This document shows, piece by piece, positions 1,163 to 27,670 of a stretch of DNA of 64,000 nucleotides. A model generated the notes under the pieces. The model searched no databases. It saw only the letters and a list, made by a program, of their open reading frames with translations, and was not told where the DNA came from. Numbering within the stretch: position 1 is the stretch's first letter; each line of letters starts with the position of its first letter. The DNA is taken from contig PHAT01000001.1 of NCBI GenBank assembly GCA_002840435.1, positions 656,979 to 720,978 of the forward strand, read 5' to 3'. Source of the DNA: Deltaproteobacteria bacterium HGW-Deltaproteobacteria-6 (lineage in GTDB: Bacteria; Desulfobacterota; Syntrophia; Syntrophales; Smithellaceae). Both the position numbers and the translations under genes were made by a program.

Positions 1163-1339
1163 TTATTTACTATCTTTACTATTTTGATCAGTTTCGTGCA
1201 TTTCCTGCCGATGCACCGGCAGCTCTCGGGGCGCTTCCACTCCGACACGGACATATTTCCCTTTCACATCCAAAATGGTTACTTTTATATCATCGCCAAT
1301 AGTAATTGACTCGCCTTGTTTTCTCGTTAAAATCAGCAT
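1163..1339 (-). CDS. csrA: CsrA, carbon storage regulator / translational repressor
   Basis: This encodes a 58-aa RNA-binding dimer-forming protein that represses or stabilises mRNAs by binding GGA motifs near ribosome binding sites. The family signature is clear: [20 protein letters not shown] at the start and [15 protein letters not shown] in the binding strand. I chose the ATG at 1339 because MLIL is the invariant CsrA start and AGGAG sits just upstream; an upstream in-frame start would add six non-conserved residues. The C-terminal tail is charged ([10 protein letters not shown]). It follows flgL by 22 bases and is probably cotranscribed with the flgF unit. Many bacteria place fliW, encoding the CsrA antagonist, next to csrA; it is absent here. 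Confidence 0.97.
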
Positions 1340-1361
1340 TTTTCTCCTGAATATCAATCAA

Positions 1362-3824
1362 CTATAAGTAGTTCATTATCGTCATTTCACCAATTTTGGA
1401 AGCCATACTATACGACGCCTGCATTGCAATTTGTTTCATCTGAAATTCCGTGATCAGTTCTGTCAAATCAGCATTTTCCACATCAGCCAGACGGTTGGTT
1501 ATCTGTAGATCAAGTGATTTATGGTTACTGCTGGCTAATTCCAGTGAACTTCTTTTCGCACCCGAAAGAGTTTCAGCCTGGAGAACTTGCGTTTGCAAAT
1601 TCTGTAATTGTTCGTTTTGAGCGCTGACTAAGTCTGTATCGTGAGAACTCAAGGCATCTTTTAACGCATAGAGGGCGGCTATAAGGTCTACCCCTCCATT
1701 TTCGGCAGTAAAGGCCGAAGAACCAGTGATATTATAAGCAAGGCTGTTGCCCTTGCCGATTTGAACGGATATACTGTCATTATTGCCGCGATAGAAGCCG
1801 GCAGCATAAGCGTTCACAGTAAACACATCATTGGCCTTAAGATCAAGGGTGCCTGGCGTAAATGTCGCGGTGACTCCATCTCCCAGCTCAATCGTTTTGG
1901 CTTGGGTTGCGTTAAATGTACCTAAAGCCAAAGTACCGCCTGAAGGATTAGTAATCGTAAGTGTCAGCGCCAGATTGCTTGCTCCGGTCATATTATCCGT
2001 GACTGTTATTTTTCCAGCCGTATCGATAGTGGCTGTTACAGCGCCACTGAAAGTCGCTTCAATCTTGTCCAGTAAATCCTGCACGGTGCCTGTGGCAGCA
2101 TTGGTTATTATATAAGTATCCGTCGGCAGCCCTCCCACTGGGTTGCCGTCGTGATCCGTACCTGTAATGGCAATAGCAGTCCCATCCTTGACAATGGCCC
2201 CATCTATTTCATGCCAAATGGTCGAAGCTGTAATGGGTAATGACCCTGCCGTTTTAGCCACTGCGGCCTTGACTTCCTGAGCAGGAAAATTCGACTCTGA
2301 ATTCCAGGTTTTACCCCCATCCTGAGATACTTGATATGTTGTCGTAGCTAATGGACCATCCGCACTAATCTTTACAGCGTACGTCTTGTTTTGCGTGCCT
2401 GTATAAGTTCCAGCAGATGTGACTGTGCCGTTAAAAGTATTGGTAGAGGACGCAGAAGCATTGTCAAAACCGGTAGCAATCGTGCTGACCGTAAATGAAT
2501 CATTGGCAGCAAGATTATGACTTCCGGCGGTAAAGGTCATTTTTATTCCATCACCTAAATTTATTTGTGAGGAAAGACCTGTTTGAGTTGAACCCCAGGT
2601 TATGCCGCCATCGGCAGATATTTGATACGTTGCCGCCGCCAATGGTCCGCCGGAAATAATTCTTAAAGCATATGTTTTATTGTCTGTTCCCGTATACGTG
2701 CCACTTGATGTGACCGTCCCGTCAAAAGCGTTAACCGGTATTGTGATTGTGTTTTCAATACCGGCAGCAGTTGCATTCACTGAAAATCTATCACCAACGG
2801 CAATCATTGTTGCCCCTTCCGTAAAGGTCAGGTTCGCTCCATCGGTGCCTAAAGCTGTGGTGCCGTCACTGGCAACTATTTGATCCGTGGTCCAGCTTGC
2901 GCCATTGTCAGTGGAATAACGATACCTGATACTACCTGAAGCCACGGTGTCCGCAGTGGTAATATCTACAAGATATGTTTTGTCTGTTGTTGCCGTATAG
3001 GTGCCACTGGATGTAACCGCGCCATCAAAAGTATTAGCTGGCAACATGGTTGCATTGGCAATATTGGCCGCAGCCGTATTCACTGAAAATCTATCGCCGA
3101 CGGCAATCATTACTGCCCCTTCCGTAAAGGTCAGGTTCGCTCCATCGGCGCCTAAAGCGGTCGTGCCGTCACTGGCAACTATTTGATCCGTGGTCCAGCT
3201 TGCGCCATTGTCAGTAGAATAACGATACCTGATACTACCGGAAGCCACGGTGCCGGCAGCGGTAATATCCACAAGATATGTTTTGTCTGTTGCTCCAGTA
3301 TAAATACCGCCCGACGTGACCGTTCCGTCAAAATCATTTACTGGTGCCGCGGTAGGGACTCCATAACTTCCTACAGAAGCCGCCGAAAATGGCGCAATAT
3401 CAGTCCTTGATCCGCCAAACAGATAACTATCACCGTTTTTGACATTCATCAAAGATACGGCTTCATCGATTAACGCGGAAACCGTTGCCGCCGAAATATC
3501 CATCGTTTCCGCGGACCCGGTGCTGGCTTCAGAAATCGCAATAGATGCAGCATCTCCTGCCAATTTCTTAATGGAAGACAGAGCAGTTTCCGCCACAGAC
3601 AGTGAAATGTCAGCATCTGTTATATTGGTTTGATATTGTTGAATGGCATTGATTAGTGTCCGGTAATTAAGAATATCGTTTGTTCCGATGGGATCATCCG
3701 ATGGACGGTTAATCATTTTTTGCGTGGATAATTTTTCCATCAACTTGCCATAATCACTCTGAATAGTGAACATACTATTCGTGATCATATTAAATTTAAT
3801 AGATTCCGTTACTCTGTTGATCAT
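1362..3824 (-). CDS. flgL: FlgL, hook-filament junction protein with large repeat insert
   Basis: At 820 aa this is far longer than a usual FlgL (about 300-420 aa). The flagellin-like N-terminus (MINRVTESIKFNMITNSMF, then RPSDDPIGT) and the coiled C-terminus (NRLADVENADLTELITEFQMKQ to MTIMNYL) identify FlgL, the second junction protein between hook and filament. Residues about 160-680 are an insert of at least four tandem beta-type modules of about 97-101 aa, each opening with an FDGTVTS-GTYTG-KTY pattern. The fourth is interrupted by a roughly 110-residue extra segment. Modules 1 and 2 are nearly identical at DNA level. The ATG at 3824 has a GAGGT ribosome binding site. It lies directly after flgK. 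Confidence 0.93.
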   Translation of the reverse strand: MINRVTESIKFNMITNSMFTIQSDYGKLMEKLSTQKMINRPSDDPIGTNDILNYRTLINAIQQYQTNITDADISLSVAETALSSIKKLAGDAASIAISEASTGSAETMDISAATVSALIDEAVSLMNVKNGDSYLFGGSRTDIAPFSAASVGSYGVPTAAPVNDFDGTVTSGGIYTGATDKTYLVDITAAGTVASGSIRYRYSTDNGASWTTDQIVASDGTTALGADGANLTFTEGAVMIAVGDRFSVNTAAANIANATMLPANTFDGAVTSSGTYTATTDKTYLVDITTADTVASGSIRYRYSTDNGASWTTDQIVASDGTTALGTDGANLTFTEGATMIAVGDRFSVNATAAGIENTITIPVNAFDGTVTSSGTYTGTDNKTYALRIISGGPLAAATYQISADGGITWGSTQTGLSSQINLGDGIKMTFTAGSHNLAANDSFTVSTIATGFDNASASSTNTFNGTVTSAGTYTGTQNKTYAVKISADGPLATTTYQVSQDGGKTWNSESNFPAQEVKAAVAKTAGSLPITASTIWHEIDGAIVKDGTAIAITGTDHDGNPVGGLPTDTYIITNAATGTVQDLLDKIEATFSGAVTATIDTAGKITVTDNMTGASNLALTLTITNPSGGTLALGTFNATQAKTIELGDGVTATFTPGTLDLKANDVFTVNAYAAGFYRGNNDSISVQIGKGNSLAYNITGSSAFTAENGGVDLIAALYALKDALSSHDTDLVSAQNEQLQNLQTQVLQAETLSGAKRSSLELASSNHKSLDLQITNRLADVENADLTELITEFQMKQIAMQASYSMASKIGEMTIMNYL
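2400..3335 (-). repeat. In-frame tandem repeats inside flgL (period 303 bp, then 291 bp)
   Basis: Anchor motifs recur at about 2407, 2698, 3001 and 3304, giving periods of 291, 303 and 303 bases, all multiples of three. The copies covering about 2800-3000 and 3103-3303 are almost identical, with only a few substitutions per 60 bases. The third and fourth copies share the protein pattern but have diverged in DNA. This indicates recent duplication or homogenisation of the first two modules. Confidence 0.9.
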
Positions 3825-3845: not shown

Positions 3846-5516
3846 CTAGCGTCCCAGATTAATTAATATGTCCATCAACTCGTTGACCGTTGAAGTCATT
3901 CTACCCGCAGCGCCGTAGGCCATTTGGTATTTGATCAAATTCATCATTTCTTCATCCAGAGACACACCGGAGAGTTGGTCCCTCTGATCAGTTTGCTGAT
4001 TGAGAATGGCTGTCATGCTTGTAAGAGATTGCGACGCATTATCAACATCCTGTCCCACACTTGCAATAAAGGCGTTAAAGTAACCGTCAATATTCGTTGT
4101 ATTGCCGCTTTTCGTCAGTTTGAATGTAATGGTTTCACCATTGCTCCAGGTGCCCGTAAGGTTTAATCTGATGTCAGCTTGAGCATCGTTATTCAAATCC
4201 AGCGTCACCATTCTATCATCAGCTGTCAATATGGCCATTGATGAATATCCGCCATTGCTTACGGTCCAATCTGACGCTGTTGAAGTCAGTCCCCGTGTCA
4301 ATGTTATAGTAGTTGAATCTTTATAAGTCTGGCCGATGTTGGTAATCTGTCCGGTTACCGTATGAGATGATGCGCCCATCTCGATTGAGGCATACATCTT
4401 ATCGCTTTGGATAGCGGTTATAGCGGTGGCGTTGTCACCGTCGGCATTAACTGTTGCCGAGGCGGCAATTTTTCTTGTATCAGCAACTATTTGAGCGCTT
4501 ACCTGCATATATTTTGCTTGTGCAGTTGATATAAAAAATGATTCTCCCGGATTGCCGTCCTGATCATAGCCGGATATATGCATTTCATTGACTTTATTGA
4601 TAATACTCGAAGCTGTTTGATTAAGTTGATCCAGATAAGATGGAATAGTATTGTCTCTAACTTCCAACAAACCGGCAAGTTTTCCTCCCGTAATTTGATC
4701 GTTGATCGACTCAGACGGATCTTCTTTAAAAACAATATCATACAAATTATTATTTCCCGTATTTCTCTTTACCTGCAATTCCCAACTCTTAAAACCTTCA
4801 ACCAGTGCTTTTCCGTTAGTCGGGAGGGAGATGTATAATGACCCATCACTCTTTTCCATATAATTGATATCAATCATACCACTGATCTTCTTTAACAGTT
4901 CTGCTCTTTTATCCCTGATTGAGGAGGCGCTTGTTCCCGCGCTTTCAGCGCTGACGATACTCTTATTGTATTCAGCTATTAGCTGTAAGTCACTGTTCAG
5001 GATGGATACTGTATCCGCGATACTATCATTCGCCGCGATCTGAACATTTTCAATATCTTCTGCCCGTTGATTAAATATGTAAGCCAGATTTTGTCCTGTT
5101 GAGACAACTGTATCTCTTTTGGATATGCTGGAGGGTTCAACGGATAGATTACCCCAGGCATTGAGAAATTCACTCAATGCATCGTTAATTCCGCCGCCGT
5201 TATTTTCATTCAGGATACCCTCAATGCTGCTCAGCGAATCCTGTTGAGCGGTATAGTTTTCCACTGAAGATTGCTGCGCGATAATTTGAGATTCAAGAAA
5301 GCGATCGTATATTCTTTCAACATCGGCAATGCGAACACCAATTTGTTCCTGTGCGGATGAAGCATCCTTTGTTCCGACTGATTCAAACATCGGACGAAGT
5401 CTGGAATAACCGGGCGTATTAACATTGGCAATATTAGCGCCGGTCACATTAATTGCCGTCAGATTGCTCAACAGAGCTTCTTTTGCCGTATATAGAACTC
5501 GACTAATGTCCGCCAT
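3846..5516 (-). CDS. flgK: FlgK, hook-associated protein 1
   Basis: This 556-aa protein is the first hook-filament junction protein, exported through the flagellar apparatus and assembled on the hook tip. The N-terminus (ALLSNLTAINVTGANIANVNTPGYSR) carries the rod/hook family motif, and the C-terminus (LSGVSLDEEMMNLIKYQMAYGAAGRM, then MDILINLGR) is the typical FlgK terminal helix. Length is normal for the family (about 450-630). A GGAGG site lies 8 bases before the ATG. The start follows the flgN stop by three bases, so the chaperone and its substrate are probably coupled, and flgL follows at once. Confidence 0.97.
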   Translation of the reverse strand: MADISRVLYTAKEALLSNLTAINVTGANIANVNTPGYSRLRPMFESVGTKDASSAQEQIGVRIADVERIYDRFLESQIIAQQSSVENYTAQQDSLSSIEGILNENNGGGINDALSEFLNAWGNLSVEPSSISKRDTVVSTGQNLAYIFNQRAEDIENVQIAANDSIADTVSILNSDLQLIAEYNKSIVSAESAGTSASSIRDKRAELLKKISGMIDINYMEKSDGSLYISLPTNGKALVEGFKSWELQVKRNTGNNNLYDIVFKEDPSESINDQITGGKLAGLLEVRDNTIPSYLDQLNQTASSIINKVNEMHISGYDQDGNPGESFFISTAQAKYMQVSAQIVADTRKIAASATVNADGDNATAITAIQSDKMYASIEMGASSHTVTGQITNIGQTYKDSTTITLTRGLTSTASDWTVSNGGYSSMAILTADDRMVTLDLNNDAQADIRLNLTGTWSNGETITFKLTKSGNTTNIDGYFNAFIASVGQDVDNASQSLTSMTAILNQQTDQRDQLSGVSLDEEMMNLIKYQMAYGAAGRMTSTVNELMDILINLGR

Positions 5517-26098: not shown

Positions 26099-27670
26099 CT
26101 ATCTTTTCAGATTCATCAACTCCTGCATAATGGTATCCTGAGTGGTCACCACGCGTGCGCTGGCTTGATAAGCTTTTTGTGACGTAATCATTTTAATGAA
26201 TTCTGTGGCGATATCCGTATTGGACATTTCCAGTGTGTTGGGTGTAAGGGCTCCCATTCCGGATGTACCCGGCGTATTTTGAATGGGGGAACCGGAGGTA
26301 ACGGTTTCACCAAACAGATTCGATCCCAATTTATTCAAGCCCCACGGATTGGTAAATTTAGATAAGACCAGCTGAGCGAGTTCAGTTGTCTGCCCATTGG
26401 TGAAAAAAGCGCTGATGATGCCGTCCTGACCGATAGACAATGTCTTTAACTGACCGGAAGCATAACCATCGGCCGTGACGGCACGGATAACTGATGCCGA
26501 GGAATACTGCGTAATTTCCAGAGCGTCATCACCGAGCATATCCCAATTCACGTCGCCGTTCACACCAATTGTCGCATTACCGTCAAGTGCAATAGCGGAT
26601 AAGTCAATCGTAATATCGCGTTTTCCTACCGATTGCGTATTAACGATTGCAAAAGTCAGTGAACCGGGATTAGAATCAAAAGTGGCTGACGTACCAGAAA
26701 AAGTAATGTCTGCATTATCCGATCCGTCCAAGCTAATCTTAACTGTCTGCTCACCTCCTGTTATTGATGAAGTTATCGTCGCATAGGGATAATCGGTAAG
26801 TGCTCCTAGAGTCCAGGCAGAACCGGCAGTAGCTGCACGTGACACAACTACGCTTGCCGAATGATGGACCATTCCCGGACGGTCAAGACTGTAGTTTGTG
26901 CCAACCTCGCTAACCAAGGCTGCGGTTCCTGTGGGTGCTGCAGGCAGCGTTCCCGTGTATGTCGCATACAATTTTCCATTGCTATCAAAGATTAATCCCT
27001 GTGCAATATCCAGGACCGCTCCATTTCCGTCAAGCGAAGCTTCAAGTCCCCAATACCCACCAACCGTCGATGTGTATCCTGTTCGGGTAAAAGTTGTATT
27101 TAAAGTATGGCTGGCGCCCAGTGAATCGTAAACCGTTTGCGTTGTATTATATTGACCATTTCTGGCTGTCGCCGCATTTAAATTGGCTCCCAGTGAGATG
27201 GTTGCGGTTGCAGTGGGTTCGGATTGTGCACCCAGCAGATTGATATCTCCGAGTGCGCCGGGTACACCGTTGGTTATAATTTTCCCCTGAACTTTATAAT
27301 TATTGACGTCCACCAGCATGTTGGAGGAATTCAGGTGAAACGCACCGGCGCGCGTGTAATAGGTCGCGCCTTCATCATCATTAACCATGAAGAAACCGTC
27401 TCCGTCAATCGCCACGTCGGTGGCGTTTCCTGTGGACTCGAATGACCCGGAACCAAACTGTGTCTGAACTTCCGTAACGGCAACACCGCGTCCAACCTGC
27501 ATGCTTCCGCCGGCGCCTCCGGAAATACTCTGACTTAAAACATCGGCGAAATACGTCGTGCCGGATTTAAAACCAACCGTGTTTACATTGGCCAGATTGT
27601 TGGCAATGACATCCAGTTCCTTGGAACTGGCGTTCAAACCTGAAATTCCCGCCCATAGCGCGCTACCCAT
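26099..27670 (-). CDS. flgE: FlgE, flagellar hook protein
   Basis: This 523-aa protein has the conserved start MGSALWAGISGLNASSKELDVIANNLANVNTVGFKSG and end LEMSNTDIATEFIKMITSQKAYQASARVVTTQDTIMQELMNLKR. It forms the universal joint of the flagellum. Residues 130-400 are the surface-exposed, variable D1/D2-type domains, including DLDGNGAVLDI-like beta sequence and a Ser/Thr-rich stretch. AGAGGAGG lies just before the ATG. It follows flgD by 26 bases. Confidence 0.97.
   Translation of the reverse strand: MGSALWAGISGLNASSKELDVIANNLANVNTVGFKSGTTYFADVLSQSISGGAGGSMQVGRGVAVTEVQTQFGSGSFESTGNATDVAIDGDGFFMVNDDEGATYYTRAGAFHLNSSNMLVDVNNYKVQGKIITNGVPGALGDINLLGAQSEPTATATISLGANLNAATARNGQYNTTQTVYDSLGASHTLNTTFTRTGYTSTVGGYWGLEASLDGNGAVLDIAQGLIFDSNGKLYATYTGTLPAAPTGTAALVSEVGTNYSLDRPGMVHHSASVVVSRAATAGSAWTLGALTDYPYATITSSITGGEQTVKISLDGSDNADITFSGTSATFDSNPGSLTFAIVNTQSVGKRDITIDLSAIALDGNATIGVNGDVNWDMLGDDALEITQYSSASVIRAVTADGYASGQLKTLSIGQDGIISAFFTNGQTTELAQLVLSKFTNPWGLNKLGSNLFGETVTSGSPIQNTPGTSGMGALTPNTLEMSNTDIATEFIKMITSQKAYQASARVVTTQDTIMQELMNLKR

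What the first reader, a model, noticed from the sequence alone, without database searches (positions are those of the whole stretch)
1362..3824. FlgL expanded to 820 aa by tandem, recently duplicated domains
At least four beta-type modules of about 100 residues are inserted in FlgL, doubling its length. Modules 1 and 2 are almost identical in DNA (period 303 bp), so copy number may be changing now. The modules would project from the hook-filament junction as a short collar of surface domains, perhaps adhesive or phage-exposed. Junction proteins are rarely expanded this way; flagellin and hook proteins more often are.
Basis: partly seen in the sequence, partly recalled or inferred. Interest (0 to 1): 0.7.

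Follow-up and report, generated by a model that had tools for sequence, protein, structure and literature searches.

The report
Flagellar junction protein with repeated domains
A protein that joins the hook and filament of a bacterial flagellum has four tandem copies of its own outer domain, the last copy carrying a further domain related to one in the flagellar cap protein; this shows how flagellar proteins swap and multiply surface parts, but similarly long junction proteins were already known.

Summary
ORF 1362-3824 (-) is FlgL, 820 aa, with four ~100-residue Asp-box modules; modules 1 and 2 repeat with a 303-bp period. They are 85% identical in DNA, not 'almost identical' (93.5% in a 216-nt core, 60-67% at the ends).

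The modules are extra copies of FlgL's native D2 outer domain: of 53 distinct FlgLs kept from the order, 5 have none, 35 one, 10 two and 3 four. Module trees group mainly by position across species, so the four-module array looks older than this species. Only module 1 looks young: its middle resembles a copy of module 2 (gene conversion, inferred). Nothing shows copy number changing now.

Module 4 is interrupted by a ~120-aa domain homologous to one in the cap protein FliD of related families. A third domain is shared between FlgK and relatives' FlgL. No FliD was detected in nine flagellated genomes of the host's family.

Expanded FlgL is already known (750-950 aa in Campylobacter). Adhesive or phage-facing roles have no evidence here. 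I rate it a new variant of a known kind, of moderate interest for the domain exchange among FlgL, FliD and FlgK.

The parts
1362..3824 (-). flgL (HAP3), 820 aa
   Evidence: predicted D0/D1 aligns with solved FlgLs at Z about 20-22
3366..3824 (-). N-terminal D0-D1 helices, residues 1-153
   Evidence: Pfam Flagellin_N; model helices H2-34, H48-102, H105-126
3030..3332 (-). module 1 (D2 copy 1), residues 165-265, in the phase of the 303-bp repeat; the profile match starts at residue 156
2727..3029 (-). module 2 (D2 copy 2), residues 266-366
2436..2726 (-). module 3 (D2 copy 3), residues 367-463
   Evidence: groups with the third modules of G027 and G031, support 100/98
2259..2435 (-). module 4 (D2 copy 4), first half, residues 464-522
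   Evidence: aligned
1890..2258 (-). nested domain inside module 4 (D3-like), about residues 523-645, homologous to a FliD domain of related families
   Evidence: boundaries approximate, from alignment A3
1788..1889 (-). module 4, second half, residues 646-679
1362..1787 (-). return to D1 and C-terminal D1-D0 helices, residues 680-820 and stop
   Evidence: Flagellin_C below cut-off; TIGR02550 second stretch; model helix 730-812
3078..3293 (-). high-identity tract in module 1 shared with module 2 (recipient side of the proposed gene conversion)
   Evidence: 202/216 nt identical, flanks 26/39 and 29/48
2775..2990 (-). matching tract in module 2 (proposed donor)
3846..5516 (-). flgK, upstream partner gene
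   Evidence: TIGR02492 315.5 bits, FlgK_D1
4101..4349 (-). 'TLTRG' domain of FlgK, also present in FlgL of six relatives but missing from this FlgL
   Evidence: E 7.5e-15 to a profile made from the six FlgL copies

Best explanation
This is a genuine FlgL whose single native outer domain (D2, a beta sandwich that leaves the D1 helical rod at residue ~155 and returns at ~680) has been multiplied to four tandem copies. The last copy carries a nested D3-like domain of the kind found in the cap protein FliD of related families. Shown by sequence: the native-D2 identity of the modules, the sharing of the array by position with two other genomes, and the homology of the nested domain to FliD. Inferred: copies arose by unequal recombination; module 1 was later overwritten in its middle by module 2 (gene conversion); the nested domain moved from FliD to FlgL, since it is more widespread and diverse in FliD. 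By analogy with solved junctions (11 FlgL per ring), the array would give a ring of 44 D2 and 11 D3 domains on the outside of the junction. The most likely role is mechanical and steric, thickening and bracing the junction as proposed for the single D2 of Xanthomonas FlgL, with surface variation as a by-product. That functional step is not tested; I put it at about 0.35 on its own, and the confidence below is for the anatomy and its origin.
For: Family: TIGR02550 above cut-off; D0/D1 of the model aligns with solved FlgLs (5yti Z 21.6, rmsd 2.1, 213 residues). Native D2: a module profile, seeded with 12 modules of 8 of these proteins, hits 48 of 53 distinct FlgLs; the first hit starts at residue 148-162 in 47 of the 48 (L084 is the exception), and 35 of 53 have exactly one copy. 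Array age: M3 groups with third modules (100/98), M4 with the last modules of the family and the single module of G012 (98/91), M1+M2 inside the position-2 clade (96/93); AU tests reject the four window modules as one clade (p 8.6e-4) and M1 with the position-1 modules (p 2.3e-5). Conversion: 32 of 46 differences between M1 and M2 fall in the 87 flanking nt; the first 20 residues of M1 match position-1 modules of G027 18/20 and G031 16/20 but M2 only 12/20. Nested domain: in 11 of 59 genomes, the own included; in the 5 f1 genomes it lies in the FlgL frame, and 4 of the 6 others, tested by Pfam, are FliD. The FliD copy of G044 is 89/123 identical to a FlgL copy of G027 while their FlgL N-terminal cores are 71/147. 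Fold: module 4 with insert modelled at pLDDT 90.6; module matches FlgK D2 of Burkholderia (4ut1, Z 8.1, 2.5 A, 83 residues), insert matches 9gsx_A of the C. jejuni junction (Z 8.2, 2.6 A, 119 residues). The D2 module is also in a FlgK of G089 (E 5.2e-31; frame confirmed as FlgK_D1).
Against: Module fold matches at Z about 8 are near the level seen for unrelated models (note), so the D2 assignment rests mainly on sequence and position. The module tree has 102 columns, 25 of 63 inner branches open, and a bootstrap that had not settled; the AU groups were named after seeing the tree. Gene conversion and loss-plus-duplication are hard to tell apart, the flank/core split was chosen after looking, and the head of M2 does not resemble the position-2 heads (12/20 and 9/20). 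In the genus, FlgL of G012 (closest core, 81%) has one module and G009/G018 none, so the array was lost repeatedly or regained; fourfold sites of M2+M3 against G031 are more alike (41/62) than the rest of the gene (45/117; p 0.0005, post hoc), which hints at exchange between genera instead of plain descent. The window's own nested copy is only 60/123 identical to the G044 FliD copy, and the clade joining them is not strongly supported (86/89). No functional data.
Confidence: 0.75

Rival explanations
1. Adhesive or glycan-binding collar: the Asp-box modules bind carbohydrate or surfaces.
For: Asp-box motif in each module, Pfam BNR above cut-off; the module profile matches sialidases in the PDB.
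Against: The listed matches cover roughly 18 to 56 of 101 profile positions around the motif; no propeller in Pfam or in the model; Foldseek lectin hits have probability 0.21 or less and TM about 0.12; the strict Asp box is also in 33 of 35 one-module FlgLs of the order.
Confidence: 0.1
2. The outer domains, above all the FliD-type domain, partly replace a missing cap: this lineage lost FliD and kept one of its domains in FlgL.
For: FliD_C found in 0 of 9 flagellated f1 genomes and in 3 of 3 sister-family genomes; no FliD_N over cut-off in the same 9; the domain sits in FlgL only in f1, and in FliD in the four other genomes tested.
Against: 7 of the 9 have sub-threshold FliD_N matches (E 0.06-0.4), which is chance level (10 of 14 control genomes ring too) but does not exclude a diverged FliD; 4 of the 9 have FlgL without the domain; FliD is also absent in Phaeobacter inhibens (PMC11974857, figure legend) and FliD_C does not ring in the Caulobacter control, so cap loss needs no such substitute.
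Confidence: 0.1
3. Neutral expansion: D2 copies accumulate because the outer surface tolerates them; no specific role.
For: Copy number 0, 1 or 4 within one genus.
Against: Open frame kept over more than 500 residues of outer domains, Asp box kept in all four modules, and grouping by position across genera.
Confidence: 0.25
4. Contingency array: module number changes within the species now.
For: M1/M2 similarity.
Against: Longest exact run 53 nt; tract fourfold identity 25/31; array shared by position with other genera. No second genome of the species was available.
Confidence: 0.06

Closest known systems
Campylobacter / Helicobacter type long FlgL (NCBIfam PRK08412, PDB 9GSX)
   Same: FlgL of 750-950 aa (PMC5691160 passage) with a bulky D2 (PMC12221982 section 12); 9gsx_A is the second-ranked Foldseek match of the full model; the nested domain matches PRK08412 positions 396-484 and 9gsx_A in structure. 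The PDB file calls 9gsx_A 'Flagellin'; I take it as FlgL because it has 11 chains of 750 aa in a complex made without flagellin genes
   Different: PRK08412 cut-off (749 bits) far from reached (62.2 bits); whether its outer domains are tandem copies was not examined; C. jejuni has FliD, none was detected in f1
Xanthomonas FlgL with one D2 (PDB 5ZJ0, 5ZIZ)
   Same: D0-D1 core and one outer beta-sandwich D2 inserted in the D1 rod (PMC6155364 passages)
   Different: one D2 against four plus a nested domain
FlgK D2-D3 of Burkholderia pseudomallei (PDB 4UT1) and FliD D2-D3
   Same: beta-rich outer domains; module aligns with 4ut1 336-421 at Z 8.1, and module plus insert spans FliD D2-D3
   Different: different axial proteins; FliD D2-D3 alignments have rmsd about 10 A, so the two domains are set at a different angle or only partly alike
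Variable outer domains of flagellin
   Same: surface domains that vary while the core is kept (PMC8306008 passages)
   Different: here in a junction protein present in 11 copies per flagellum (PMC12221982 passages), not thousands

Membership tests
FlgL / HAP3 (TIGR02550) | profile score above curated cut-off | tested here: met
   171.5 against 127.2 bits
FlgL / HAP3 (TIGR02550) | D0-D1 helical termini of FlgL/flagellin type | tested here: met
   Flagellin_N; 5yti Z 21.6, 5ziy_A 21.1, 5zj0 20.6, 2d4x 20.5, 7c7z_A 20.0
FlgL / HAP3 (TIGR02550) | gene next to flgK | tested here: met
   flgK 3846-5516 directly upstream
FlgL / HAP3 (TIGR02550) | 11-subunit ring between FlgK and filament | not testable with these tools
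   known for Salmonella and C. jejuni (PMC12221982)
native FlgL D2 domain (the modules) | same place in the chain and same sequence family as the single D2 of ordinary relatives | tested here: met
   48 of 53 FlgLs hit, first hit at residue 148-162 in 47; 8 of the 53 gave the seeds
native FlgL D2 domain (the modules) | beta-sandwich fold of FlgL/FlgK D2 | tested here: inconclusive
   4ut1 Z 8.1, 2.5 A over 83 residues, close to background Z
Campylobacter-type FlgL (PRK08412) | NCBIfam cut-off | tested here: not met
   E 2.7e-17 but 62.2 bits against 749
BNR/Asp-box sialidase-like propeller | Asp-box motif | tested here: met
BNR/Asp-box sialidase-like propeller | propeller or catalytic domain | tested here: not met
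   no such domain in Pfam; the model shows separate small beta domains
FliD outer domain (the nested domain) | significant sequence homology with a domain inside FliD | tested here: met
   profile E 9.7e-62 for G044 FliD and hits in 6 other frames of FliD type; 4 of these 7 frames tested with Pfam, all FliD_C, the other 3 named by eye

The most novel reading that the evidence does not exclude
In the ancestor of this family the filament part was replaced by a FlbT/FlaF-type, FliD-less one, and a surface domain of the lost cap protein survived by moving into FlgL's outer domain, where the FlgL ring, thickened by D2 duplication, now helps seat the first flagellins in place of a cap.
Probability: 0.08. 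Interest if true: 0.75.

Novelty: new variant of a known kind. Interest (0 to 1): 0.42.

Why it matters
It gives a case in which junction and cap proteins (FlgL, FlgK, FliD) share a small pool of outer domains that are duplicated, nested, probably converted, and lost, with copy number 0, 1 or 4 inside one genus. That makes outer-domain evolution of the junction testable with ordinary comparative genomics, and raises the question of how filaments start in a lineage without a detectable FliD.

Tried and rejected
Assembly artefact: rejected because exact shared runs are at most 53 nt and other genomes have the same plan. Phage origin of the modules: no match to M3 in 50,697 phage records; PHROG hits only at E 0.009 (M1) and 0.047 (nested domain), none for M3. 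Sialidase or lectin reading; the first 35 rows are lectins of low probability, while 9gsx_A (rank 37) has probability 1.00. Second copy of the nested domain elsewhere in the window's genome: none at E up to 10. Horizontal exchange of M2-M3 between genera: suggestive, not pursued. M1/M2 conversion younger than the split from G012: not significant (p 0.056). A typed pattern search gave nothing. Literature: searches listed no paper on tandem D2 copies in FlgL or on FlgL-FliD domain exchange, and one search found none holding its three terms (listings and abstract starts only; most subscription papers are not held), so 'not in print' is not claimed.

Rows dropped: the 53 FlgLs are distinct sequences passing both end profiles, from loci; loci were capped at 30 a call, so not every genome with a match is represented. 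L087 (G083), L082, L023 and the truncated L019 match the N-terminal profile but not the C-terminal one and were not counted. In one search the row named L161_FliD is the window's own FlgL (a labelling slip) and is ignored. L084 was left out of the module tree.

Full report
Observation. The ORF at 1362-3824 on the minus strand is an intact 820-aa FlgL directly downstream of flgK (3846-5516). The 303-bp tandem repeat is real (86% matches, 2.1 copies; 300 nt at 84%). A module profile finds four copies in the protein, at residues 156-255, 256-356, 356-453 and a split one that begins at 454-512 and ends at 678. Each has one Asp box. Modules 1 and 2 differ at 46 of 303 nt; 32 of these lie in the 87 flanking nt and 14 in the 216-nt core.

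What the modules are. I collected FlgLs from the same genus, family and order. A TIGR02550 match at E 0.001 or better was found in 5 of 20 genomes of the genus, 9 of 51 of the family and 58 of 140 of the order (genomes at least 80% complete); over the family's cut-off 5, 8 and 53. Of 53 distinct FlgLs kept (dropped rows are in Tried and rejected), 5 have no module, 35 one, 10 two and 3 four (the window, G027 at 1057 aa and G031 at 917 aa). The usual ~400-aa FlgL of the order has one module at the same place, residue ~155 on. So the modules are copies of the native D2 domain. In the genus the counts are 4 (window), 1 (G012), 1 (G006), 0 (G009) and 0 (G018), while the core tree makes the genus one clade with G012 as sister of the window.

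How the array evolved. In the module tree (102 columns, 25 of 63 inner branches open, bootstrap not settled) modules group by position across genomes: M3 with the third modules of G027 and G031 (100/98); M4 with the last modules of the family and the single module of G012 (98/91); M1 and M2 together (100/99) inside the position-2 group (96/93). Holding M1 with the position-1 modules is rejected (p-AU 2.3e-5), and so is one clade of all four window modules (p-AU 8.6e-4) (groups named after seeing the tree). The first 20 residues of M1, however, resemble position-1 modules (18/20 with G027, 16/20 with G031) more than M2 (12/20); against this neat picture, the head of M2 is no closer to position-2 heads (12/20, 9/20). 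The simplest reading is an old four-module array in which the middle of M1 was overwritten by M2. Fourfold-site identity is 25/31 in that tract, against 21/33 and 10/19 between the FlgL ends of the window and its nearest relative G012; the pooled difference is not significant (p 0.056), so the event may be about as old as that split, and it is not current. Fourfold sites of M2 and M3 are also more alike between the window and G031 (41/62) than the rest of the gene (45/117, p 0.0005; post hoc; the same contrast is p 0.07 for G027 and p 0.77 between G027 and G031), a hint of exchange between genera.

The nested domain. About 120 residues interrupt module 4 after its Asp box (alignment). The same insertion is present in the last module of G022, G023, G027 and G031, and a second time in module 1 of G027 (its two copies are 84% identical). 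A search of 59 genomes, the own included, found it in 11: five f1 genomes, always in the FlgL frame, and six from other families in frames of 578-1185 aa. Four of these six were tested with Pfam and all have FliD_C, three of them FliD_N too (the fourth is cut at its start). A profile of the FlgL copies finds it in seven frames of FliD type at E down to 9.7e-62, once to three times per protein (three of the seven named by eye). The nearest FliD copy is that of G044, the row next to f1 in the FlgL tree. It is 89/123 identical to one copy of G027 although the N-terminal FlgL cores of the two are only 71/147; to the window's copy it is 60/123. In a small tree it falls with the FlgL copies, without strong support (86/89). 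Homology is shown; the direction FliD to FlgL is inferred from the wider spread and diversity on the FliD side.

A third shared domain. Six relatives' FlgLs (G006, G012, G022, G023, G027, G031) carry a ~100-aa domain ('TLTRG', my label) after D2; a profile of it finds the frames upstream of flgL in those genomes, FlgK by place and start, and the window's FlgK (E 7.5e-15), and weakly the window's hook protein (E 4.9e-6; Pfam FlgE_D2 and rod domains). The window's FlgL lacks it. The D2 module itself also occurs in a FlgK of G089 (L070; E 5.2e-31; FlgK_D1 at 3.1e-60). FlgL, FlgK and FliD thus draw on one pool of outer domains.

Structure. The full model (pLDDT 73.7, pTM 0.47) aligns over D0/D1 with solved FlgLs (Z 19-22); the two best Foldseek matches are a Geovibrio flagellum chain (9au6_A) and 9gsx_A of the Campylobacter junction complex. 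Module 4 with its insert is modelled well (pLDDT 90.6, pTM 0.80). The module part matches FlgK D2 (4ut1, Z 8.1) and the insert matches 9gsx_A (Z 8.2), flagellin and FliD outer domains. These Z values are close to background, so they support the sequence evidence and do not replace it. The PDB file calls 9gsx_A 'Flagellin'; I read it as C. jejuni FlgL (11 chains, 750 aa, complex from a flaA flaB deletion; PMC12221982, section 12). Foldseek alone put lectins first with probability 0.21 or less and TM about 0.12; I discount them. Sialidase matches of the module profile cover roughly 18 to 56 of 101 positions around the Asp box (60 of 82 rows shown).

Mechanism. [quoted passage not shown] For Xanthomonas FlgL, D2 was proposed to reinforce contacts between FlgL subunits (PMC6155364, passages). 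I take bracing or shielding of the junction as the likeliest role, but this step is inference only.

Known and new. Long FlgL is known: 750-950 residues in Campylobacter and relatives, 410 in Burkholderia, 317 in Salmonella (PMC5691160, passage), and C. jejuni FlgL has a bulky D2 in the 2025 structure (PMC12221982, section 12). What I did not find in the held papers (listings and abstract starts) is tandem duplication of D2 with grouping by position, or the FliD-type domain in FlgL. Hence 'new variant of a known kind'.

Side result. The nine flagellated f1 genomes have no FliD_C match (3 of 3 sister-family genomes positive) and no FliD_N over cut-off (7 of the 9 have matches at E 0.06-0.4, a level at which 10 of 14 control genomes ring too). 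Seven of nine have FlbT, one as a piece at a contig end (G012), and 0 of 3 sister-family genomes do. The window's genome has flagellin, FlbT and two FlaF genes together. In the control genomes Caulobacter rings for FlbT and not for FliD_C, and FliD is reported absent in Phaeobacter inhibens, which has flbT and flaF (PMC11974857, figure legend and table). The two genomes with module-less FlgL (G009, G018) have no Flagellin_N match but FlgL itself and no FlbT; G012 also shows only FlgL, probably for want of the rest of that contig.

Noticed in passing
G000 and eight other flagellated f1 genomes: No FliD (cap) gene detected in 9 of 9 at the curated cut-offs, while 3 of 3 sister-family genomes have it; 7 of 9 have the regulator FlbT, known from Caulobacter.
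   Followed up: partly
L160 4080-7367 (window's genome, contig C5): Filament locus: flagellin 445 aa, a 141-aa protein without Pfam match, FlbT and two FlaF genes in a row, on another contig than flgK-flgL.
   Followed up: partly
L105 4593-6888 (G009); L103 (G018): Module-less 295-aa FlgL in two genomes with no other Flagellin_N match; FlgK of G009 is 461 aa, 95 aa shorter than the window's. Perhaps a hook and junction without filament, or a missed flagellin.
   Followed up: no
window 26099-27670: Hook protein FlgE (FlgE_D2) carries a weak match (E 4.9e-6) to the outer domain shared by FlgK and FlgL.
   Followed up: no
window about 1230-1340 (-): A csrA-like start ([17 protein letters not shown]..., read by eye) follows flgL directly; name recalled, not searched.
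   Followed up: no
L095 9575-11973 (G027): Two TPR-like proteins with very similar C-terminal halves (by eye) sit on the other strand between flgL and a flagellin-like gene.
   Followed up: no
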